A stretch of 64,000 nucleotides of DNA, from positions 1-64,000 of the forward strand of contig JABAQQ010000052.1 of NCBI GenBank assembly GCA_019187225.1, given 5' to 3'. Below, one piece after another: positions 20,184-29,820 of the stretch. The position numbers and the translations under genes were made by a program. The notes under the pieces are model-generated. The model was not told the origin of the DNA. It was given only the letters and a program-made list of their open reading frames with translations, and made no database searches. This stretch comes from Saprospiraceae bacterium. GTDB lineage: Bacteria; Bacteroidota; Bacteroidia; Chitinophagales; Saprospiraceae. Positions within the stretch are counted from its first letter, which is position 1. Every line of letters begins with the position of its first letter.

Positions 20184-22619
20184 TCACTCCGACCGCAACG
20201 ACTCCACCGGGTTCGCCAACGCCGCCCTTACCGCCTGAAATCCGATCGCTGCCAATGCCACCACAATTGCCAGCGCCCCTGTGATGGCAAACAGATACCA
20301 ACCGATATTGACCCGGTAGACAAAGTCCTCCAGCCAACGGTTCATACCCCACCAGGCCAAAGGCGCGGCCAGGGCGAAAGCGATCAGGACGAGTATCAGA
20401 AAATCGCGGCTCAGCAGCCCGACCACTGAGCCGACGGAAGCGCCCAGCACCTTGCGAATGCCGATTTCCTTCGTTTTCTGGACGGCGATCAGCGATGCCA
20501 GCCCGAACAGGCCGAGGCAGGAAATAAAAATGGCCAATACAGCGAAGCCTTTGCAAGTGAGAGAGAAGCGGTTTTCGTCGCGGTAAAATTCGGCGATGGA
20601 CTCGTCGAAGTACTGACCGTCGAATACCTGTTCGGGGAAAGTCCGGTCGAATAATTTCTGAATGGAGGTCGTCGTGGCATTCATGTTTTCGGGGTGGATT
20701 TTGATGCCTGCCACGTAGTAAAGTTCTTTCCGGGTGGTCATGGTGATGGGCTCCAGTTCCTGGTGCAGCGAGTGCGAATTAAAATCTTCCACCACACCCA
20801 CGATGGTCATCCACCGTCGGCCGCCGAGGCGCAGTTCTTTGCCCAATACTTCGTTCAAGTCTTGTATACCCAGTTTGCGCAACAGGGTCCGGTTGACCAC
20901 CGCTTCGCGCATGGTGTCGCTGGGTGCGGGGATGCGTCCGGCAGCCATTTTCAACCCGTAGGTTTTGAAATAATCCGGTTCGCAATATTTGATCGAGGTG
21001 TTGAACAAGGCATCCTGCGCACCCCGACCCAATGCAAAATTGCTCGACCAGGTGTTGCCGGACGAAGGCACATCGCTGCCATAGCCGACCGATTCCACAC
21101 CTGCGAGTTGCAACAGTTGTTGTTTGAACGTCTCGAAACGTGGGGCGCTGCTGCTGTCGTAACTGACATTCACCGTATACACCAGATCCGGCTGAAAACC
21201 CAGGTCCATTTTGCGGATGAAATCCAGTTGACTGACAGTGATCAGTGTGCCGACGATCAAACCCTGCGCTATCACAAACTGCAACACCACCAAAGATTTG
21301 CGCAGTGTGCCGCCACCGGCACTATTGGGTGAAGTATTGCTTTTTAATGCTTTGATGGGGTTGAAGCCCGCCAATACCATTGCCGGATAAAAGCCCGACA
21401 AAAGGCTTACCACCAGTGTCAATGCCAACAAAAATGCCCAGATCGCCGGATTGGAAAAGAAAGGAAGCGCATCCGGCACTTCGGATATGTGTTTCAGGAG
21501 TGGCGCCAGCGCAGCGGCCAGCGCGGCAGCCAATGCAACGGAGAACAATACGAGCAATGTCGTTTCCCCCATGAACTGGCGCATCAATTGGCCGCGGCTG
21601 CCTCCCAGGCTTTTGCGCACACCCACTTCCTTTGAGCGCCGGGCTGCCAGCGCGGTGGCCAGATTGATAAAATTGAAACAGGCCATGACGACGATCAAAA
21701 CGCCCACCAGCGACAACACCCACAAACGGCTCTTACTGACAGTGTGGCTCCCATTGTTGCCAAAACGGTCGTCATAATGTTTATCGGCCAGCGGCTGCAA
21801 TTCGTGTTTTTTGCTGAAGTGCGGGCTTTCGCTTTTGTATTCCTTCTGGCCGACGGTAGCGAGCGTAGTATTGGCGGCAGCCAATTGTCCTGCGTCGCGA
21901 AGCAGGCCGAAAACCTGATCGTTGCTGCTCGTGCTACCCCAGTCTTCATGGTATGAATACAATTCCTTGTTTTTTTTCAGGGTTTCGTACGATACCATCA
22001 GGTGGAAAGGAAAATCGCTATTGTCCGGCGCATCGGCCACTACGCCGCGCACCGCCAGAAGCAGGGCATTGTCCATCAACACCGTTTTGCCCAGGGCCTC
22101 CTGCCAGGAGTCAAAGCATTTTTCGGCCATTTTTTGGGTCAGGACGATCGAATTGGGCTCTTTCAATGCCGTTTCAGGGTCGCCCGCCAGCCATTGCCAG
22201 TCGAATATTTTGAAAAATGAAGGCTCCGTAAAAATGCCGAGTTCGTGCTCATTATCGGTATTGAATTTCCGGCTTGCCCCGCCGCCTGTGGCGTCGGGGA
22301 CGGAAATTGTAGGCCAGGTCTCTTTGATGCGCGCGTATTGCTCGAATTGGGTAACCGTATTTTGGATGGCATCCATCGCCGGGATGGGGATACCTGGTGT
22401 ATGCCCTTCTCCTTCTTCCGGACTTTTTGTCACCGTGACGACGCGCACGATGCGGTCGTAGTTCTTGAAATGTTTGTTGAAGCTCAGTTCATAATGAACC
22501 AGGCGGAAAATCAGCAGGCTGGCGGCTATGCCGACAGCCAAACCGAGGATATTGATAGTGGAATAAAGCCGGTTGTTCGAGAGATTGCGAAGGGCGAGTT
22601 TGAGATAGGTAGCGAGCAT
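20184..22619 (-). CDS. FtsX/MacB-like ABC transporter permease
   Basis: An 811-residue permease with the duplicated architecture common in Bacteroidota: an N-terminal transmembrane helix (TINILGLAVGIAASLLIFRLVHYEL, about 20-45), a MacB-type periplasmic core domain (about 50-260), an FtsX three-helix block (about 285-430), a second periplasmic domain (about 440-660) and a final FtsX block (about 680-805). Such proteins convert cytoplasmic ATP hydrolysis into extracytoplasmic work (export of peptides, lipids or toxins). It probably works with the two ATPases and HlyD adaptor encoded at 24982-28036. A double dyad and a -24/-12-like element upstream (22708-22814) suggest sigma-54 control by the regulator at 28441. 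The in-frame ATG at 22619 starts the conserved N terminus. Confidence 0.88.
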   Translation of the reverse strand: MLATYLKLALRNLSNNRLYSTINILGLAVGIAASLLIFRLVHYELSFNKHFKNYDRIVRVVTVTKSPEEGEGHTPGIPIPAMDAIQNTVTQFEQYARIKETWPTISVPDATGGGASRKFNTDNEHELGIFTEPSFFKIFDWQWLAGDPETALKEPNSIVLTQKMAEKCFDSWQEALGKTVLMDNALLLAVRGVVADAPDNSDFPFHLMVSYETLKKNKELYSYHEDWGSTSSNDQVFGLLRDAGQLAAANTTLATVGQKEYKSESPHFSKKHELQPLADKHYDDRFGNNGSHTVSKSRLWVLSLVGVLIVVMACFNFINLATALAARRSKEVGVRKSLGGSRGQLMRQFMGETTLLVLFSVALAAALAAALAPLLKHISEVPDALPFFSNPAIWAFLLALTLVVSLLSGFYPAMVLAGFNPIKALKSNTSPNSAGGGTLRKSLVVLQFVIAQGLIVGTLITVSQLDFIRKMDLGFQPDLVYTVNVSYDSSSAPRFETFKQQLLQLAGVESVGYGSDVPSSGNTWSSNFALGRGAQDALFNTSIKYCEPDYFKTYGLKMAAGRIPAPSDTMREAVVNRTLLRKLGIQDLNEVLGKELRLGGRRWMTIVGVVEDFNSHSLHQELEPITMTTRKELYYVAGIKIHPENMNATTTSIQKLFDRTFPEQVFDGQYFDESIAEFYRDENRFSLTCKGFAVLAIFISCLGLFGLASLIAVQKTKEIGIRKVLGASVGSVVGLLSRDFLILVLIAFALAAPLAWWGMNRWLEDFVYRVNIGWYLFAITGALAIVVALAAIGFQAVRAALANPVESLRSE

Positions 22620-22707: not shown

Positions 22708-22722
22708 TTCAATCGGCATGCC
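22708..22722 (-). promoter_or_regulatory. Candidate sigma-54 -24/-12 promoter of the permease gene
   Basis: On the minus strand GG (22722-22721), ten bases, then GA (22710-22709) give CGGCATG...TTGAA. This agrees with the sigma-54 consensus TGGCAC-N5-TTGC at the -24 GGCA and the TTG of -12, with A instead of C at the last -12 position. It lies 89 bp upstream of the permease start. The nearest end of the double dyad is 57 bp further upstream. Confidence 0.5.
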
Positions 22723-22778
22723 GCTATTGTAAAATATTGATAATCAGTTAGTAAATTGATTATTATTTAAAATAAAAA

Positions 22779-22814
22779 TGCCCGAAACCGAACGAAAATG
22801 TTCGATTTCGGACA
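22779..22814 (-). promoter_or_regulatory. Double dyad, candidate enhancer of the permease gene
   Basis: On the minus strand two 16-bp dyads lie 4 bp apart: TGTCCG-N4-CGAACA (22814-22799) and CGTTCG-N4-CGGGCA (22794-22779). The same two-dyad layout, in the same orientation relative to transcription, recurs at 28270-28305 beside the sigma-54 response regulator. This is the expected form of a binding site for two regulator dimers. Assignment to the regulator at 28441 is inference. Confidence 0.6.
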
Positions 22815-22830
22815 CTTGTGCCAACATGAA

Positions 22831-22966
22831 TCATGCGAATCAGGAGCAAAACACTCATGCGCATTGGACTTCAATTACTCAGATAGCACGTTTACGAAAC
22901 TTTCAAAGTTTCGTAAATGTAAACACCTGGAAATCAGCGACGAATTTTTAACCCTGATTCGCATGA
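22831..22966. repeat. Nested fold-back repeat
   Basis: A perfect 14-bp inverted repeat (22831-22844 and 22953-22966) encloses a second perfect hairpin, 13+1+13 bp, at 22891-22917 with core ACGAAACTTTCAAAGTTTCGT. A similar inner core, CTAAACTTTCAGAAGTTTGG, occurs at 46336-46355 inside another fold-back. This points to a shared repeat family. Confidence 0.8.
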
Positions 22967-23035
22967 GCCGCCCCTGATTTTGCAACATGACAAATACAAT
23001 CCGTTTTTCACAATGTTCCTTGAAAAGGGTATTCT

Positions 23036-23155
23036 GTGCCGTCGTTGTGCGTCCGCGCCAACGACAATTCATCACATCAGCCAGGCGTTTTTGTTCTCTT
23101 TTCCTCCTGGCTATGGTGAAAATCTGCTGTTGGCGTGGACGCACAACAGCGGCAC
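23036..23155. repeat. Imperfect long fold-back repeat
   Basis: Arms 23036-23062 and 23129-23155 (27 bp) are reverse complements with three mismatches; the outer ends are GTGCC / GGCAC. An inner imperfect pairing (AGCCAGG ... CCTGGCT) makes a nested stem. It lies directly downstream of the OmpA-family gene and could also act on its 3' end. Confidence 0.65.
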
Positions 23156-23205
23156 AAGGCTCTCGTGCATTGTTTTTACATTGTTATAAATTTCAGGGTG
23201 GCGTT

Positions 23206-24762
23206 TTATTCTCGCGTAAACCGCACCTCTACCCGCCTCCGGAGTTGTTGGTTGAGCAGCGGGTCGTCCGACAACAATTTTTCACTGACCGGCTGGCTGG
23301 AACCTTTTCCGGTGAATTGCAGGCGTGATGGCGGGATGCCCTGCGATACCAGAAAATCGTATACTTTTTTGGCGCGGTTACCGGAAAGGTTGGCCGTGGC
23401 GGTTTCGGCAGCGTCGTCGGTATGACCGGAGATAATGGCTTTCAGGCTGTTGTCGTTTTTAAGAATTCCCACTACCTCGTCGAGCGTTTCATCGGAGGTT
23501 CTGTACCAGTTGTCCTGCGCAGCCCTGAAATAGATGGCTTTATCGGGCGGCGGCAGGGCAGGGCAGCCTTTTTGATCGGCGATTCCGGCTACATCGGGGC
23601 ATTTGTCGTCCTTATCGGCAATGCCGTCGCCATCGGAGTCGGGGCAGCCGTTCAACTCAACCGGCCCCGCCGCATCGGGGCAAAGGTCGTCTTTATCGGC
23701 GATCCCGTCTTCGTCCTGGTCAGAAGGCATACACCCGCGATATGCAGCTTGTCCGGGTACGTCGGGGCATTTGTCGTCCTTGTCGGCGATGCCGTCGTCG
23801 TCGGAGTCGGGGCAGCCGTTCAACTCAACCGGGCCGGGCTGTTCGGAGCACAGATCGTACTTGTCCGCAACGCCGTCGCCGTCTTTGTCGGGGCAACCTT
23901 TCAGGCTTTTCAGCCCGGGTGTAATGGGGCAATCATCATCGAAATCGGCGATGCCATCTTTGTCTGTGTCGACAAACAGGTCTTTCTGCCGGGGTTTTTC
24001 TTTCGTTTTTTCTTTGAGTTCTTCCGTTTTGGCGATGGGTTTATTGCGTTTATTTTTACCGAAGGGGTAACTGAATCCAATCTGTGCGGTAAAATACCAG
24101 TCGTTTTCATTGGGGTTCCCGGCCTGACTCACCCCGTCGAGGTAGTCCGAGTAGGTAGGGCGCAACGCGGCCTCCAGACCGAATGTACTGTGGTCTTTCA
24201 ACAAAAAGCGGAGACCGAGGCCGAGCGGTGTGACGATGTTGACTTTATTTGTTTTGGCCTCCTTGTCGCGCTGAGCGGCTTCAGGGTCAATGTATTCGTT
24301 TCCGTTGGTATCGTTCCAGAATACAGTGGGATTGGAATAAGCTCCACCCACGCCTATAAAAAGATAGGGCGCCACGGCGCGGCGTGCTTTGATTGACTTG
24401 CCGCGCTTTGGATACATTCCGAGCGGGTAGTATTCGGCAATTGCCGTCACTTCTGCAAACGGACTTTCAAAGTAAATGCCCCGGAGCACGCGCCATTCCG
24501 GTTCGGCAAAATTGGCGTCATCGCCCGCTAATTTGCCCGCTACCAGGCCGATCCTGGTAGCAAAATTGTTGCTCAGGTTGCGGCGCAAATAAGCTGCAAC
24601 CGAAAAATGTATTTCCCTGAATCCGGTGTTGACTTTGAGTGCGTCGAGGTCGCCCTGATAGGAGGTGATGCCGAGCCCGCCGCCAAAATCCCATTTGAAG
24701 GGAGTTTGTCCAAACGATATAAACGGCAAAAAGAGGAAGATCAGAGGTAAAAGTTTTTTCAT
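23206..24762 (-). CDS. OmpA-family protein with beta-barrel and thrombospondin type 3 repeats
   Basis: A 518-residue outer-membrane protein. After a signal peptide (cleavage near ISFGQ) comes an 8-stranded-type barrel (about 20-230, WDFGGGLGITSYQGDL ... FTAQIGFSYPFG). A charged linker and five calcium-binding thrombospondin type 3-like repeats follow (DTDKDGIADFDDDCP, DKDGDGVADKYDLC, DSDDDGIADKDDKCP, DQDEDGIADKDDLCP, DSDGDGIADKDDKCP; about 265-405). A C-terminal OmpA domain (about 415-518: LKAIISGHTDD ... NRAKKVYDFLVSQGI ... RRRVEVRF) should bind peptidoglycan. It tethers the outer membrane to the wall. It sits between the permease and ATPase genes on the same strand, with 219 bp separating it from the ATPase gene, so functional linkage is possible but unproven. 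Confidence 0.92.
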   Translation of the reverse strand: MKKLLPLIFLFLPFISFGQTPFKWDFGGGLGITSYQGDLDALKVNTGFREIHFSVAAYLRRNLSNNFATRIGLVAGKLAGDDANFAEPEWRVLRGIYFESPFAEVTAIAEYYPLGMYPKRGKSIKARRAVAPYLFIGVGGAYSNPTVFWNDTNGNEYIDPEAAQRDKEAKTNKVNIVTPLGLGLRFLLKDHSTFGLEAALRPTYSDYLDGVSQAGNPNENDWYFTAQIGFSYPFGKNKRNKPIAKTEELKEKTKEKPRQKDLFVDTDKDGIADFDDDCPITPGLKSLKGCPDKDGDGVADKYDLCSEQPGPVELNGCPDSDDDGIADKDDKCPDVPGQAAYRGCMPSDQDEDGIADKDDLCPDAAGPVELNGCPDSDGDGIADKDDKCPDVAGIADQKGCPALPPPDKAIYFRAAQDNWYRTSDETLDEVVGILKNDNSLKAIISGHTDDAAETATANLSGNRAKKVYDFLVSQGIPPSRLQFTGKGSSQPVSEKLLSDDPLLNQQLRRRVEVRFTRE

Positions 24763-24981
24763 GGCAGCTCTGTATTAAAAAATACGCCGAACTTCTGCGG
24801 GTGACAAAGTTGCGGGAAGTGAAGCGGTTTTTACAAAAAGCTACAGAGTCAAAAATTTTGCCATGTTGCGTAAAAACAAAGCGGCCATTCGAGTTTTTAG
24901 GCCACTGCTTTCCGCTTTTGCCGAAAAGAAGTAATTCTAATACCCGAATGGCTGCTTGCGTTTGTCCAAATATTCTGAAAA

Positions 24982-25671
24982 TCAGGCTCTTTTTACCAAT
25001 TCTTCGCTTTCCACCCTTCCGTCCATCAAATGCAGTATCCGCTTGCCGTATTGCGCATTCGTTTCAGAATGCGTTACCTGAATGATGGTGACTCCGTCTT
25101 CTTCGTTGAGTTTTTTGAAAATCTCCATGATCTCTTTGGCCTGCTGGCTTTGCAGGTTGCCCGTAGGTTCGTCGGCCAGAATGAGTTTGGGATTGCCGAT
25201 CAGCGCGCGCGCGACGCCGACCAGTTGCTGCTGACCGCCGGATAACTGATTGGGAAACAAGTCTTTTTTCGCCACGATATTGAACCGGTCGAGCACGTCG
25301 GCGATGCGGCTTTTCCGTTCGGACGAAGGGACTTTCTTGTAGAGCAGCGGCGTTTCTAAGTTTTCATATACCGTCAGGTCGTCAATCAGGTGATAGGCCT
25401 GGAATACGAACCCGATGTATTGCTGGTAGAGTTCGGTGCGGCGGCGCTCATTGAATTTGTGCACGGCTTCGCCCAAAAACCAGTATTCTCCCGCTGTGGG
25501 TTCGTCCAGCATGCCCAATATATGGAGCAGGGTGCTTTTACCCGAACCGCTGGGGCCCATAATGCTGACAAATTCACCTTCGGCAACGTGGGCGTTCACA
25601 TAGCGCAGGATGTATGATTTGAGCGCACCGTTTTGATAATAACGTTCAATGTCTTTTAGTTCGAGCATCAT
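24982..25671 (-). CDS. ABC transporter ATP-binding protein (MacB/LolD type), second of pair
   Basis: A 229-residue ATPase of the MacB/LolD subfamily. Walker A is GPSGSGKST, the signature is LSGGQQQLVGVARAL (the usual R after QQQ is L here), and Walker B is [11 protein letters not shown] followed by an H-loop in QVTHSE. It powers an FtsX-type permease. The start at 25671 is chosen from the conserved beginning MMLELKDIERYYQNG; the longer frame to 25734 runs through intergenic hairpins. It is the last gene of the HlyD-ATPase-ATPase series, separated from the upstream ATPase by about 330 bp filled with palindromes, which may reduce its expression relative to the first two genes. Confidence 0.93.
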   Translation of the reverse strand: MMLELKDIERYYQNGALKSYILRYVNAHVAEGEFVSIMGPSGSGKSTLLHILGMLDEPTAGEYWFLGEAVHKFNERRRTELYQQYIGFVFQAYHLIDDLTVYENLETPLLYKKVPSSERKSRIADVLDRFNIVAKKDLFPNQLSGGQQQLVGVARALIGNPKLILADEPTGNLQSQQAKEIMEIFKKLNEEDGVTIIQVTHSETNAQYGKRILHLMDGRVESEELVKRA

Positions 25672-25683
25672 CTTGTGTTGGCT

Positions 25684-25775
25684 CCCACCGATAGGCCGGT
25701 GGGTTGAGTTGAAAAAGTCCTGCGGACCTGGCATTCAGCCCACCGATTTATCGGTGGGGTTACCGATTCATCGGT
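25684..25775. repeat. Cluster of three CCACCGAT/ATCGGTGG palindromes
   Basis: Three small hairpins occur in 92 bp: 25684-25703 (CCCACCG/CGGTGGG), 25739-25758 (CCCACCGAT/ATCGGTGGG, 9-bp stem, 2-nt loop) and 25762-25775 (ACCGAT/ATCGGT). They lie between the two ATPase genes. Confidence 0.75.
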
Positions 25776-25800
25776 GGGGCAATTCAGCAATAAATGACGT

Positions 25801-25906
25801 CAAAACGCAGCCGTCGCGATCCGCCGGCTTTTGTTTGGATAAAGACGGCTGACTAACTAACAGGTGGTTAGACAGTGCGACCAGCGAACCGGCCGGCTGC
25901 GTTTTG
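25801..25906. repeat. 106-bp fold-back element
   Basis: Terminal arms CAAAACGCAGCC (25801-25812) and GGCTGCGTTTTG (25895-25906) are perfect 12-bp reverse complements. Inner pairings (GCCGTC with GACGGC) give additional stems. MITE-like shape; no coding capacity. Confidence 0.65.
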
Positions 25907-25947
25907 CGCTTTCAGTAGTTTTTGTTTTTAGTTGTTGCACCGTTTAC

Positions 25948-25990
25948 CGGAACGCTGTTCCGATAGAGAAAAGCCGGAACTCCGTTCCGG
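25948..25990. repeat. REP-like CCGGAAC/GTTCCGG palindrome pair
   Basis: Two palindromes: 25948-25962 (CGGAAC-N3-GTTCCG) and 25974-25990 (CCGGAAC-N3-GTTCCGG). The stem sequence recurs at 28375-28422 in this window, so this is a dispersed family. They end 10 bp from the stop of the first ATPase gene and may act as its 3' structure. Confidence 0.75.
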
Positions 25991-25999
25991 TATATAGCC

Positions 26000-26677
<678 letters not shown>

Positions 26678-26785
26678 TGTTGAATCGTTGAATTGTTGAT
26701 TTGTTTATTTGGTGATTTGAAAGTTTTGCTTGAGGGATAGGGTGAAATGAGATTCGACTGACCATATCCCCGAATAACCAAATTC

Positions 26786-28036
26786 TCATTGAAGGTTCAA
26801 GATGTCTTTATCCCCGAAGTTCTCATAACTACTTGTGATCACTTGTTCTCCGGGCTCCAGGCCGCTCAGTACTTCGAAGTATTGAGGGTTTTTCCGGCCT
26901 AAGGAGATGTTGCGTTTTTCGGCTTTAGAGCCGCTTTCATTGAGCACGTAGACCCAGTTGCCGCCCGTGTCGCTGAAAAAGCCGCCGGTCGGGAGCAAGG
27001 TGGCTTCGGCAGGTTTGCCGAGTTGCAGCCGTACGGGCACCGACTGGCCACGCCGTATGCCTTCGGGGATTTTCTTTTCAAAGGTCATGTCCACTTCGAA
27101 GCGTCCATTGCGCACTTCGGGGTATACTTTCGCGACGACCAGTTTGGTGGTTGCGCCGCTGAACTCGAAAGACCCTTCGAGTCCCGGAAAGATGCGCGAA
27201 ATATAGTGTTCGTCTACTTCCACGCGCATTTTGAAGCCGTTGAGATCGTCAATCTGGCCGATGTTCTGTCCGGCGGTGATGCCCGCGCCGATTTCCACGT
27301 CTACCCGCGACAAGAGGCCGGAAACAGGAGCTTTGACCGAGAGGTTTTCGAGGTTCTGTTTCATCATACTCAGGTTGGTACGGGTACGATCCAGCGTGCC
27401 CTCCAACTGCTTGATTTGCACAAGGCTGTTCTCTTCCTGAAATTTTTGGTTCTCGATCTCGATCTCGCGCTGCTGTGTGAGGCGCTCGAAGGCTATTTTG
27501 GTGCGGGTGAATTCCTGCGAGCTGATGACTCCATCGGCGAACAGTTTGATGTTGCGCTCGTGGTCGTCCTTGGCTTGTTGTATTTGGTAGTCCAATTCCG
27601 AGAGGGTGCGGCGCAGCGCGAACTTGTCCTGTTTGAGGCTGAGTTTGGTGTTTTCCAACTCGTTGATCAGGCGGTACATTTCCGTTTCCCGGTTGACAAA
27701 ATCCATGGTGAGGCGCTGGTTCTCCAGTTTCAGGATCAGGTCGCCCTGTTTCACCGTTGCGCCGCCGTCCAATAGTTTTTGCGACACATAGCCGCCTTCG
27801 ATGGCATCGAGTTGGTAGGTTTTTAAGGGCTGTACTACGCCCGTGACCACGATAAATTCGTCAAATACGCCGCGTTCCACTTTCGACACCGTGATCTTTT
27901 CGCGGTTGACATTGAGGCTGCTGTGCCGCCCTGCAAGCGCGATGCTGTAAACGGAAAATGCCACGAACGCCAGCGCCGCAATACCGAGACCTATGCGCTG
28001 GGGCGTCCATTTTTTCTTTTTGATTGCTCTGTCCAC
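26786..28036 (-). CDS. HlyD/MacA-family periplasmic adaptor of the exporter
   Basis: A 416-residue membrane fusion protein. I choose a GTG start at 28036 (VDRAIKKKKWTPQRIG...). The longer frame to 28171 would put a repeat-derived, non-conserved stretch in front of the single N-terminal membrane anchor (IGLGIAALAFVAFSVYSIAL). Then come a lipoyl-like half (VTGVVQPLKTYQLDAIEGGYV), a long coiled-coil hairpin (about 100-210, LENQRLTMDFVNRETEMYRLINEL...), the second lipoyl half (LSVKAPVSGLLSRVDVEIGAGI) and a beta-barrel/membrane-proximal region (VRLQLGKP ... VYVLNESGSKAEKRNISLG). It links the inner-membrane ABC permease to an outer-membrane channel that is not in the window. Upstream sites (28200-28305) suggest sigma-54 control. 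Confidence in the function is high, in the start moderate. Confidence 0.88.
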   Translation of the reverse strand: MDRAIKKKKWTPQRIGLGIAALAFVAFSVYSIALAGRHSSLNVNREKITVSKVERGVFDEFIVVTGVVQPLKTYQLDAIEGGYVSQKLLDGGATVKQGDLILKLENQRLTMDFVNRETEMYRLINELENTKLSLKQDKFALRRTLSELDYQIQQAKDDHERNIKLFADGVISSQEFTRTKIAFERLTQQREIEIENQKFQEENSLVQIKQLEGTLDRTRTNLSMMKQNLENLSVKAPVSGLLSRVDVEIGAGITAGQNIGQIDDLNGFKMRVEVDEHYISRIFPGLEGSFEFSGATTKLVVAKVYPEVRNGRFEVDMTFEKKIPEGIRRGQSVPVRLQLGKPAEATLLPTGGFFSDTGGNWVYVLNESGSKAEKRNISLGRKNPQYFEVLSGLEPGEQVITSSYENFGDKDILNLQ

Positions 28037-28121
28037 GTTCTGTTGATAAAAGGTTGATCCCGCACAGGGGTGGGAAATGCGTTTGAAAAAAGAGAATGAA
28101 GCAATTTGCGTCAACCTTACT

Positions 28122-28153
28122 CCCGATCCCTCTCTCCATAGGGAGGAATCGGG
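28122..28153. repeat. Inverted repeat in the leader of the HlyD operon
   Basis: Arms 28122-28132 and 28143-28153 (11 bp, one mismatch) with stem CCCGATCCCTC-type pairing. The hairpin is in the untranslated leader if the GTG start is used, and inside the frame if 28171 is used. Confidence 0.5.
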
Positions 28154-28199
28154 GCTCAGGTTGTACAGCAAACCAAATCAAACTTTCACAGTATGCAAA

Positions 28200-28214
28200 T
28201 TCAACCCTGTGCCA
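28200..28214 (-). promoter_or_regulatory. Candidate sigma-54 promoter of the HlyD operon (imperfect)
   Basis: On the minus strand a perfect -24 half TGGCAC (28214-28209) is followed by TTGAA (28204-28200). The gap is one base short of the standard GG-N10-GC rule, so the -12 part is weak. The -24 GG is 57 bp from the nearest end of the double dyad, exactly the distance found at the permease gene. Confidence 0.4.
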
Positions 28215-28269
28215 AAATCTTAAACATCTGAAAATCAAACTTTTTATCATTCCTGTCGCCCCATGTATC

Positions 28270-28305
28270 CGTTCGCTGGCGAACGCCGGTGTCCGAAAAC
28301 GAACA
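28270..28305. promoter_or_regulatory. Double dyad between HlyD operon and sigma-54 regulator, candidate enhancer
   Basis: On the plus strand CGTTCG-N4-CGAACG (28270-28285), a 4-bp spacer, then TGTCCG-N4-CGAACA (28290-28305). The second dyad matches the distal dyad upstream of the permease gene (22814-22799) at 15 of 16 positions. Placed between divergent transcripts, it could serve both directions. Confidence 0.6.
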
Positions 28306-28348
28306 CTATTTCAAAAAATTTCCGTTGATTTGCACACCCTTAGCGGCG

Positions 28349-28362
28349 GGCATTGTCTTTGC
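28349..28362 (+). promoter_or_regulatory. Candidate sigma-54 promoter of the response regulator
   Basis: On the plus strand GG (28349-28350), ten bases (CATTGTCTTT), then GC (28361-28362): GGCA at -24 and TTTGC at -12, with standard spacing. It is 44 bp from the double dyad, and a start site about 12 nt downstream (about 28374) would put the REP-like hairpin 28375-28422 at the very 5' end of the mRNA. This suggests autoregulation. Confidence 0.5.
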
Positions 28363-28374
28363 GGCTTGTACGTA

Positions 28375-28422
28375 CGCCGGAAGTCCGTTCCGGCGTGAAA
28401 GGGCCGGAACGGACTTCCGGCG
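28375..28422. repeat. REP-like perfect 20-bp palindrome before the regulator start
   Basis: Arms 28375-28394 and 28403-28422 are perfect reverse complements (stem CGCCGGAAGTCCGTTCCGGC) with an 8-nt loop. Flanking GTACGCCGG (28372-28380) pairs again with CCGGCGTAC (28429-28437), 3 bp before the ATG. The CCGGAAC core matches the pair at 25948-25990. Confidence 0.85.
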
Positions 28423-28440
28423 CACAAACCGGCGTACACC

Positions 28441-29820
28441 ATGGAAATGAACGAAGCCAATATCCTCATTGTAGACGACAACCCGGGTGTGTTGAGCGCG
28501 GGCAAATTGTTCCTCAAGCGCCATTTCGCAGAAGTGGATACCACACGGGAGCCGGAGGAAATACCCGGCTTTATGAAGGAAAAACGGTACGACATCATTC
28601 TGCTCGACATGAATTTTGGCCGCAGTGCCAAAAATACCGGGCAGGAAGGTTTCCAATGGCTGGGAAAGATCCTCGAACTCGATCCTTCGGCGGTGGTTGT
28701 ACTCATCACCGCTTATGGTGACGTGGAACTGGCCGTGCGCGCCATCAAGAACGGCGCAACCGATTTTGTGCTCAAGCCCTGGGACAACGACAAACTGCTC
28801 GCTACCCTGCACTCCGCACTGAAGCTAAAATCCAGCCAGGACGAAAATACCCAACTGAAATCCAAACAGGCAGGTCGCAACCTCGCCGAAGCCCGCGACC
28901 TGCCGGAAATGATCTTCCAGAGCCGTGCGATGCAGCAAATCTATGAAACGGTGCAACGTATAGCGGAGACGGACGCCAACGTCCTTTTACTCGGCGAAAA
29001 CGGCACCGGCAAGGATTTGATCGCACAGGCGATCCACTCACACAGCCGACGCGCACAGGAGAATTTTGTGAAAGTGGACCTCGGCGCCATTACAGAAACG
29101 CTTTTTGAAAGTGAACTTTTCGGCCACGTCAAAGGTGCTTTCACCGACGCCCGCGAAGACCGCCCGGGCCGGTTCGAAGCGGCTGACGGTGGCACCATAT
29201 TTTTGGACGAGATCGGCAATTTGACACTGGGGCTCCAGGCCAAACTACTCACTGTACTGCAAAACCGTACCGTTACCCGCGTCGGCTCCAACCGGGTGCG
29301 CCCGGTCAACGTGCGGGTCATCGCCGCCACCAATCAAAACCTGTATGAAGCGGTGAAAAACCGCACCTTCCGCCAGGACTTGTTGTACAGGATCAATACG
29401 ATAGAAATTCAACTTCCGCCGCTGCGCGAGCGTACGGACGATATCGAACCGCTGGCACAGCATTTCCTGAAAGAATTCGCGCGCAAATACAACCGCCCCG
29501 TCACGGGCCTCAGTGCAGCCTTGCTGAAAGAAATGCTCCGTTATCCCTGGCCCGGTAACGTCCGCGAACTTCAGCACGCCGTAGAACGCGCCGTTATCAT
29601 GGCGCAGGGTGAAAAACTCCAGCCGGAAGACTTCTTTTTCCGCCAGAACGGCGTCGAAGAACACGGCGCTGAATTGCCTACCATGAACCTCGACGACATG
29701 GAAAAACAACTGATCATGAAGGCCCTGCAGAAATACCACGGCAACATCACGGAAGCGGCTGCGGAATTGGGTCTGACGCGGGCATCCCTGTACCGGCGCT
29801 TGGAAAAGTATCATTTGTAA
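28441..29820 (+). CDS. NtrC-family sigma-54-dependent response regulator
   Basis: A 459-residue regulator with three domains. The receiver (about 5-125) has the phospho-acceptor D56 in ILLDMNF and Lys in LKPWD. The AAA+ sigma-54 activator (about 160-390) has Walker A GENGTGKD, Walker B TIFLDEIGN and GAFTDA at 232-237 in place of the canonical GAFTGA; GAFTDA is a frequent family variant and does not by itself imply loss of function. The Fis-type helix-turn-helix (ITEAAAELGLTRASLYRRLEKY) is at the C terminus. No sensor kinase is in the window. It is divergent from the HlyD operon, and the two-dyad sites at 22779-22814 and 28270-28305 are the best candidates for its targets. The palindrome just upstream of the start may limit translation. 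Confidence 0.93.
   Translation: MEMNEANILIVDDNPGVLSAGKLFLKRHFAEVDTTREPEEIPGFMKEKRYDIILLDMNFGRSAKNTGQEGFQWLGKILELDPSAVVVLITAYGDVELAVRAIKNGATDFVLKPWDNDKLLATLHSALKLKSSQDENTQLKSKQAGRNLAEARDLPEMIFQSRAMQQIYETVQRIAETDANVLLLGENGTGKDLIAQAIHSHSRRAQENFVKVDLGAITETLFESELFGHVKGAFTDAREDRPGRFEAADGGTIFLDEIGNLTLGLQAKLLTVLQNRTVTRVGSNRVRPVNVRVIAATNQNLYEAVKNRTFRQDLLYRINTIEIQLPPLRERTDDIEPLAQHFLKEFARKYNRPVTGLSAALLKEMLRYPWPGNVRELQHAVERAVIMAQGEKLQPEDFFFRQNGVEEHGAELPTMNLDDMEKQLIMKALQKYHGNITEAAAELGLTRASLYRRLEKYHL

What the first reader, a model, noticed from the sequence alone, without database searches (positions are those of the whole stretch)
22708..28362. Shared two-dyad enhancer linking a sigma-54 regulator to the permease, the adaptor operon and itself
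The regions upstream of the permease gene (22779-22814) and between the HlyD operon and the response regulator (28270-28305) each contain two 16-bp dyads of the TGTyCG-N4-CGrACA type with a 4-bp spacer, in the same orientation relative to the minus-strand transcripts. The near end of both is 57 bp from a GGCA -24-like element, and a GG-N10-GC element also faces the regulator. The repeated layout at two sites 5.5 kb apart fits one regulator acting on a split exporter regulon. Weak points: the -12 elements are imperfect, and at the HlyD promoter the spacing is one base short.
Basis: partly seen in the sequence, partly recalled or inferred. Interest (0 to 1): 0.75.

Follow-up and report, generated by a model that had tools for sequence, protein, structure and literature searches.

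The report
Shared on-switch for scattered export genes
A very regular DNA control element (two matching regulator sites, a DNA-bending site and a sigma-54-type promoter) sits in front of an adaptor/ATPase operon and over a dozen scattered membrane-permease genes, suggesting that one two-component regulator switches on a whole family of exporters that until now looked like orphans.

Summary
In the window's own 7.18-Mb genome (Saprospiraceae-like) the full element occurs at 15 places: ahead of the HlyD/ABC operon and of 14 FtsX/MacB-type permease loci, three of them with a small gene between. Layout: dyad, 3-6 bp, dyad, usually 53-56 nt, GGCAYR (-24), N4, TTG (-12-like), with an IHF-consensus site at a fixed place between. 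Of 45 related genomes, the element is in 30 of 30 with the HlyD gene and 1 of 15 without; the window's regulator in 29 of 30 and 0 of 15; permeases in 9 of 9 tested and 0 of 15. Class-wide, 73 of 395 genomes (own included) have it; 26 of 29 loci inspected elsewhere lead into an exporter gene. Best reading: the regulator, with a kinase encoded beside permeases on C19, drives sigma-54 transcription of an exporter with one adaptor and many permeases. Binding, transcription starts and transport are untested; the -12 departs from GC in most sites. A 2025 survey already linked sigma-54 to FtsX permeases.

The parts
22799..22814 (-). distal dyad of the permease enhancer (perfect)
22779..22794 (-). 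proximal dyad of the permease enhancer (two departures)
22730..22742 (-). IHF-consensus-like site TATCAATATTTTA, 9 of 9 positions
22708..22722 (-). sigma-54-like promoter of the permease, GGCATG-CCGA-TTGAA (GG-N10-GA)
20184..22619 (-). FtsX/MacB_PCD duplicated permease (ADOP-like, 811 aa)
24982..25734 (-). ABC ATPase 1 (nearest NCBIfam DarD, below cut-off)
26000..26677 (-). ABC ATPase 2 (nearest NCBIfam DarD, below cut-off)
26786..28171 (-). HlyD/MacA-type adaptor (nearest NCBIfam DarC, below cut-off); the true start is probably near codon 44, where most relatives' matches begin
28200..28213 (-). sigma-54-like promoter of the HlyD operon, GGCACAGGGTTGAA (TTG one base early)
28221..28233 (-). 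IHF-consensus-like site TTTCAGATGTTTA, 8 of 9 positions
28270..28285 (.). dyad proximal to HlyD (two departures)
28290..28305 (.). dyad distal to HlyD, proximal to the regulator (perfect)
28349..28362 (+). GGCATTGTCTTTGC, GG-N10-GC element facing the regulator
28441..29820 (+). sigma-54 response regulator (receiver, AAA+ with GAFTDA, HTH_8; 459 aa)

Best explanation
The dyad pairs are binding sites (enhancers) of the NtrC-type response regulator encoded at 28441-29820. Phosphorylated, probably by the NtrY-like kinase that accompanies it in several relatives and is encoded on contig C19 beside permease genes in this genome, it binds the two dyads. An IHF-like protein bends the DNA at the conserved site between enhancer and promoter, and the AAA+ domain opens RpoN-RNA polymerase at the GGCAYR-N4-TTG promoter. 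Targets are the HlyD-ABC2-ABC1 genes, 14 permease loci and the regulator gene itself, so that one signal makes a DarBCD/MacAB-like export system with one adaptor, one or two ATPases and many alternative permeases. Shown by sequence: the elements, their geometry, gene context and co-occurrence with regulator, adaptor and permeases. Inferred: binding by this regulator, sigma-54 transcription, IHF bending, kinase pairing, operon structure, and sharing of ATPase and adaptor by the permeases.
For: 15 full elements in the genome, next match E 8e-4 and partial (the 15 trained the profile). Fixed geometry: over 54 sites a strict GGCAYR within 100 nt is found 51 times, 44 at 53-56 and 5 at 64-66, one helical turn further; IHF consensus 8-9 of 9 in 13 of 15 own sites against 0.3% in shuffles. 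Element in 30 of 30 HlyD-positive and 1 of 15 HlyD-negative genomes; regulator 29 of 30 and 0 of 15; permeases 9 of 9 and 0 of 15. 35 of 39 relative sites lead into exporter genes. In G125 regulator and HlyD are 1.68 Mb apart, yet HlyD keeps the element. Regulator homologue divergent from the site in 8 of 29 class-wide loci. One RpoN in the genome. Kinase orthologue 76% at C19:71415-72752.
Against: The -12 is GC in only 12 of 53 sites and imperfect at both window promoters. GAFTGA is GAFTDA. The 45 genomes were chosen by me, five of the 30 positives already known to carry the pattern, and they are not independent by descent. 2 of 22 full-length permeases lack the element, alone or in tandem. 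Some class-wide regulators are paralogues, so several regulators may read similar dyads. G006 has two weak hits without the regulator. In L187 and a few others the strict -24 lies at 64-73 nt.
Confidence: 0.85

Rival explanations
1. Another NtrC-family protein binds the dyads; the regulator next to HlyD is a co-inherited bystander.
For: Paralogous regulators with a similar end of the HTH (TR.SLYRR) exist, and similar dyads precede operons with paralogues.
Against: Presence of this regulator tracks the element, and its own upstream region carries the pair after relocation.
Confidence: 0.1
2. The permeases are not exporters sharing one ATPase: each uses another ATPase, or they are FtsX-like signal relays; only the regulation is shared.
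For: FtsX-like proteins can relay signals instead of transporting (abstracts in the listing). No partner was tested.
Against: Adaptor, OEP/TolC-type protein and two ATPases share the element or the neighbourhood; the permease aligns with DarB and ADOP along nearly its whole length; no match to these ATPases was found in the 24 own permease loci with 1.5-kb flanks.
Confidence: 0.3
3. The promoters belong to the housekeeping sigma factor and the dyads are an operator for repression.
For: The -12 is relaxed; the regulator-facing element resembles a Bacteroidota -7 box (TAnnTTTG, recalled) in part.
Against: GGC at a fixed distance with an IHF-like site and a sigma-54 activator; the GG facing the regulator is kept while neighbouring bases vary.
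Confidence: 0.05
4. The element was merely copied along with duplicating permeases and has no shared function.
For: Many carriers are paralogues in tandem arrays.
Against: Non-homologous genes carry it (HlyD, ABC ATPase, outer-membrane efflux protein, BlaI/MecI-type, Lumazine_bd_2), and the spacing is kept while the rest diverges.
Confidence: 0.03

Closest known systems
Sigma-54 promoters with NtrC-family activators and IHF (NtrC, NifA with TGT-N10-ACA sites, PspF; recalled)
   Same: Paired dyads of the TGT-N10-ACA length, -24 GG, IHF-like site between enhancer and promoter, receiver-AAA+-Fis-type activator, one RpoN.
   Different: The C of the -12 GC is mostly lost; the distance between enhancer and promoter is nearly fixed in whole helical turns; one regulator serves many scattered permease loci.
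Sigma-54 survey of PMC12316311 (2025; passages read)
   Same: Predicted sigma-54 promoters enriched at COG0577/FtsX-like permeases in Bacteroidia.
   Different: In the passages seen: no regulator, dyad enhancer, IHF site, adaptor/ATPase operon or orphan-permease set; Saprospir-, Chitinophag-, Lewinella, orphan and IHF do not occur in its text.
ADOP duplicated orphan permeases (TIGR03434)
   Same: Full-length match, E 4.9e-107; many copies, no match to these ATPases adjacent in the own genome.
   Different: 359 bits against a cut-off of 622.3; here tied by regulation to an adaptor/ATPase operon.
Darobactin exporter DarBCD
   Same: Best NCBIfam hits of HlyD and both ATPases are DarC and DarD; the permease also matches DarB.
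   Different: All scores below the equivalog cut-offs; one adaptor and many permeases instead of one of each.

Membership tests
Sigma-54-dependent promoter | GG at -24 (GGCAY) | tested here: met
   15 of 15 own sites have a GGC core at 54-56 nt, 13 of 15 a strict GGCAYR
Sigma-54-dependent promoter | GC at -12, ten bases after GG | tested here: not met
   GC in 12 of 53 sites; first G in 50 of 53; GA and AA at the two window exporter promoters. Met only by the element facing the regulator
Sigma-54-dependent promoter | rpoN in the genome | tested here: met
   one PF04552 match, E 2.5e-50
Sigma-54-dependent promoter | transcription start 12 nt after the -12, RpoN dependence | not testable with these tools
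   needs 5'-end mapping and a mutant
NtrC-family enhancer-binding protein | receiver, sigma-54 AAA+ and Fis-type HTH domains | tested here: met
   PF00072, PF00158, PF02954
NtrC-family enhancer-binding protein | GAFTGA loop | tested here: not met
   GAFTDA in the window; GAFTDA or GAYTDA in the 11 closer relatives read; GAFTDA is counted as active in PMC4641369 (passage)
NtrC-family enhancer-binding protein | binds the dyads upstream | not testable with these tools
   inferred from co-occurrence and adjacency
IHF-assisted enhancer | WATCARNNNNTTR between enhancer and promoter | tested here: met
   8-9 of 9 positions in 13 of 15 own sites; shuffles 0.3%
IHF-assisted enhancer | IHF/HU gene present and bending | not tested
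   PF00216 was not searched
ADOP (TIGR03434) | score over the curated cut-off | tested here: not met
   359 against 622.3 bits
Darobactin exporter DarBCD | scores over the equivalog cut-offs | tested here: not met
   DarB 135.5/700, DarC 218.8/450, DarD 273/375 (ABC2) and 238.6/375 (ABC1)

The most novel reading that the evidence does not exclude
Across Bacteroidota one kinase/sigma-54 regulator pair commands a combinatorial exporter: a single adaptor and one or two ATPases are shared by 10-40 interchangeable duplicated permeases that look like orphans, all expressed through one stereotyped enhancer-IHF-promoter unit with helical phasing and a relaxed -12 read together with a GAFTDA activator. 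This would name the missing ATPase of ADOP-like permeases.
Probability: 0.45. Interest if true: 0.82.

Novelty: new variant of a known kind. Interest (0 to 1): 0.68.

Why it matters
Duplicated FtsX-type permeases occur in dozens of copies in Bacteroidota, annotated as of unknown function (28 and 33 copies in two Dyadobacter species, PMC11573002, passage). A shared promoter unit ties them to one adaptor/ATPase operon, one regulator and one kinase, so partners, inducing signal and substrates become directly testable. It also gives a predictive promoter grammar for sigma-54 in a phylum where the searches made here found no such enhancer rule in print.

Tried and rejected
Single dyads as a marker: rejected, 131 against 63 reversed at up to 1 mismatch; exact single dyads on C2, C18 and C25 have no exporter neighbour among the query genes, C9 only a weak ABC hit. 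The first scan of permease upstream regions assumed the wrong locus orientation and was discarded; one search replaces it. The idea that a PadR-type gene explains the long gaps at three own sites was not borne out: the ORFs between are a 162-aa lipoprotein-like protein, a Lumazine_bd_2 protein and a 99-aa ORF without Pfam match; one PadR-like gene (by eye) was seen in L163. Copying along with permeases as the whole cause: rejected because non-homologous genes carry the element. A housekeeping promoter for the regulator-facing element cannot be excluded. In one search the GG was sought only 40-65 nt away with ties drawn to 54; one search repeats it strictly over 0-100 nt, and the report uses that. 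Literature: (open-licence PubMed Central only; no preprint collection is held).

Dropped before counts: L162, L174, L176, L178 and L185 are among the 54 sites but were left out of profile R2. L188 was not used. In the class-wide search only nine candidates a genome were scored, so its counts per genome are capped (own genome 9 instead of 15).
Full report
WHAT WAS CHECKED. The 36-bp pattern with up to 3 mismatches occurs 5 times in the window's own genome (G000, 7,183,558 bases, 73 contigs) and never in the reversed control. In 150 genomes of the family, own included, 11 have a hit; the reversed control hits 2. Single dyads are not informative.

THE SITES IN THE OWN GENOME. A search with the window permease gives 25 matches: 22 full-length paralogues, two pieces of a broken relative on C4 and one weak partial match on C1. 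Scanning 1.5 kb upstream of each for dyad pairs with any spacer from 0 to 23 gave pairs with spacers of 4, 5 or 6 at 13 of the 22 full-length genes and at the C4 relative. Seven of the other nine lie 78-281 nt behind such a gene, or behind the next one in the same tandem, on the same strand; two (C21:112925, C15:84094) lack the element. At three sites (C19:81416, C32:2081, C15:33926) a small ORF lies between element and permease. Downstream of the 14 pairs and of the HlyD pair stands a GGC core, 54-56 nt after the proximal dyad, then N4 and TTG, TATG or TGTG, with an AT-rich stretch containing TGATAATCA-like sequence in between. None of this entered the choice of the 13 new sites. In 2000 shuffles at most 4 of 15 showed such a core at that place (mean 0.52); observed 15 of 15 (threshold chosen after seeing the data).

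GENOME-WIDE SPECIFICITY. A sequence-only profile of the 15 sites finds these 15 at E 1.2e-22 to 9.6e-13; the next match is E 7.8e-4 and partial, namely the window's dyads read towards the regulator. The 15 match by construction; the information is that no other full-length site exists.

RELATIVES. With the HlyD protein, 120 of 398 family genomes (own included) have a match at E 1e-60. I searched 45 of the 398 with the profile: 30 with HlyD (all 30 have at least one element, up to 20) and 15 without (one, G006, has two weak hits, best E 2.7e-6). Nine of the 15 are of the window's own genus. The choice was mine, and five of the 30 (G062, G023, G055, G125, G107) were known to carry the dyad pattern. 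The regulator at E 1e-110 or better is in 29 of the 30, missing in G396 (650 contigs), and in 0 of 15. Permeases at E 1e-40: 9 of 9 regulator-positive genomes tested have 1 to 42 (42 is the scoring cap); 0 of 15 negatives. So regulator, adaptor, permeases and element come and go together, within one genus too; relatedness was not corrected for.

GENE CONTEXT. I fetched 39 element sites from six relatives (10 of 11 in G340, 7 of 16 in G018, 3 of 6 in G361, 12 of 20 in G023, 4 of 19 in G125, 3 of 9 in G055). 35 of 39 have a same-strand permease, HlyD or ABC match downstream, 32 within 300 nt; in L163 a PadR-like gene comes first, and in L173 and L186 a HlyD-like and an efflux-protein-like ORF (by eye) precede the ABC match. 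The other four are L156 (162-aa protein resembling the one at own C19:81416), L162 (BlaI/MecI type, Pfam PF03965), L179 (Lumazine_bd_2, as at own C15:33926) and L185. Many first ORFs begin 20-70 nt after the element, as a sigma-54 start with a short leader would give.

GEOMETRY. Over 54 sites (15 own, 39 relatives) the spacer is 3-6 bp. A strict GGCAYR within 100 nt of the proximal dyad is found 51 times, in 49 of the 54 sites: 44 at 53-56 nt, 5 at 64-66, one each at 69 and 73, none elsewhere; five sites have no strict match. The regulator-facing GG-N10-GC lies at 43-44 nt in 10 of 30 regulator loci. The three classes differ by 10-11 bp, one turn of the helix. At -20 to -8 from GG the IHF consensus WATCARNNNNTTR (recalled) is met at 8 or 9 of 9 positions in 13 of 15 own and 21 of 39 relative sites, against 0.3% in shuffles. 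Relative sites were found with a profile that includes these positions, so their agreement is partly built in; the own sites are the cleaner test. Another promoter-blind set, the 11 relative sites found by the dyad pattern alone, has a strict GGCAYR at 53-56 nt in 8 of 11, always in one orientation only; two more have a GGCAT at 53 and 56, one has none.

THE -12. Where GC is expected, 53 sites read GG 21, GA 14, GC 12, GT 3, AA 2, AC 1. The first G is nearly fixed, the C is not. In the window the permease has GA and HlyD AA; the HlyD form, one base short, recurs in G340. By the strict rule these are not sigma-54 promoters; by -24, distance, enhancer, bend site and activator type they work like them. 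The window regulator and the 11 closer relatives read carry GAFTDA or GAYTDA in place of GAFTGA, a variant that PMC4641369 counts as active (passage read). Whether the loop and the relaxed -12 belong together is open.

THE REGULATOR. It has receiver, sigma-54 AAA+ and HTH_8 domains. A kinase-like gene follows it directly in G125, G204, G190, G023, G328 and G391 and as the second gene in G254; HATPase_c was found in the three scanned (G125, G254, G391). The window has none; the orthologue (76% to that of G254) is at C19:71415-72752, 2.1 kb from the enhancer at C19:74826 that opens a stretch of five permeases. In G125 regulator and HlyD are 1.68 Mb apart, yet HlyD keeps the element and the regulator a dyad pair. 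In G311, G340, G391 and G328, where the regulator lies 3 kb or more from HlyD or on another contig, it has its own pair with the GG-N10-GC element.

BEYOND THE FAMILY. A second profile from 49 sites hits 73 of 395 genomes of the class (own included; Bacteroidia by inference from the named relatives) at E 1e-4. Of the 29 loci returned outside the own genome, 26 lead into an exporter gene (8 permease, 13 HlyD, 4 ABC, 1 outer-membrane efflux protein) and 3 into a small secreted-like protein; one of the 13 HlyD loci (L298) has a small ORF first, and L320 is called HlyD and L323 from Pfam. 8 of 29 have a regulator homologue divergent from the site. Some of these regulators are paralogues, so this is a regulator clade and not one orthologue. 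In G087, G123, G049 and G086 similar dyads precede compact HlyD-ABC-permease-regulator operons, a possible ancestral state of the scattered system (inference).

FUNCTION. Adaptor and ATPases are nearest to DarC and DarD, the permease to ADOP and DarB, all below the curated cut-offs. None of the 24 own permease loci or pieces with their 1.5-kb flanks, nor the 20-kb stretches L016 and L017, contains a match to the window's ATPases or adaptor at E 1e-10. The simplest reading is one adaptor and one or two ATPases serving many permeases; this is inference, and separate ATPases or a signalling role remain possible.

LITERATURE. PMC12316311 (2025; passages read) reports enrichment of predicted sigma-54 promoters at COG0577 in Bacteroidia and regulation of FtsX-like permeases, and calls this the first evidence. 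So the sigma-54 to permease link is not new. Regulator, enhancer, IHF grammar and hub were not found in those passages or in searches. PMC11573002 (passage) reports 28 and 33 orphan permeases of unknown function in two Dyadobacter species. PMC3162934 (passages) has no occurrence of FtsX, HlyD, efflux or Bacteroid-.

VERDICT. Observation confirmed, interpretation supported and widened; mechanism at 0.85, shared-hub exporter at about 0.45.

Noticed in passing
window 28377-28420 and 25974-25991: The leader of the regulator gene holds a perfect inverted repeat (CCGGAAGTCCGTTCCGGC and its complement); a third copy with two mismatches lies between the two ATPase genes. Possibly a dispersed repeat or a leader hairpin.
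   Followed up: partly
window 22889-22921: Inverted repeat (TTTACGAAACTTTCAAAGTTTCGTAAA) between the OmpA-type gene and the permease enhancer, perhaps a terminator (by eye).
   Followed up: no
window 23206-24762: An OmpA/TSP_3/DUF6089 outer-membrane protein gene lies between the permease and ATPase 1; no two-dyad element was found upstream of it.
   Followed up: no
G000:C4:101692-103119 (L056, L057): A permease relative broken by a stop still has the full element upstream.
   Followed up: no
L298, L307, L309, L310: Small secreted-like proteins of 109-133 aa without strong Pfam match stand first behind the element in other Bacteroidia; possible cargo or signal.
   Followed up: partly
L019, L024, L025, L028, L173, L186: Compact exporter operons with HlyD- and ABC-type genes behind similar dyads; the first four end in a paralogous regulator.
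   Followed up: partly
G000:C18 (L075-L077, L082, L087): The AT-rich IHF-like middle part of the profile alone recurs several times on contig C18.
   Followed up: no
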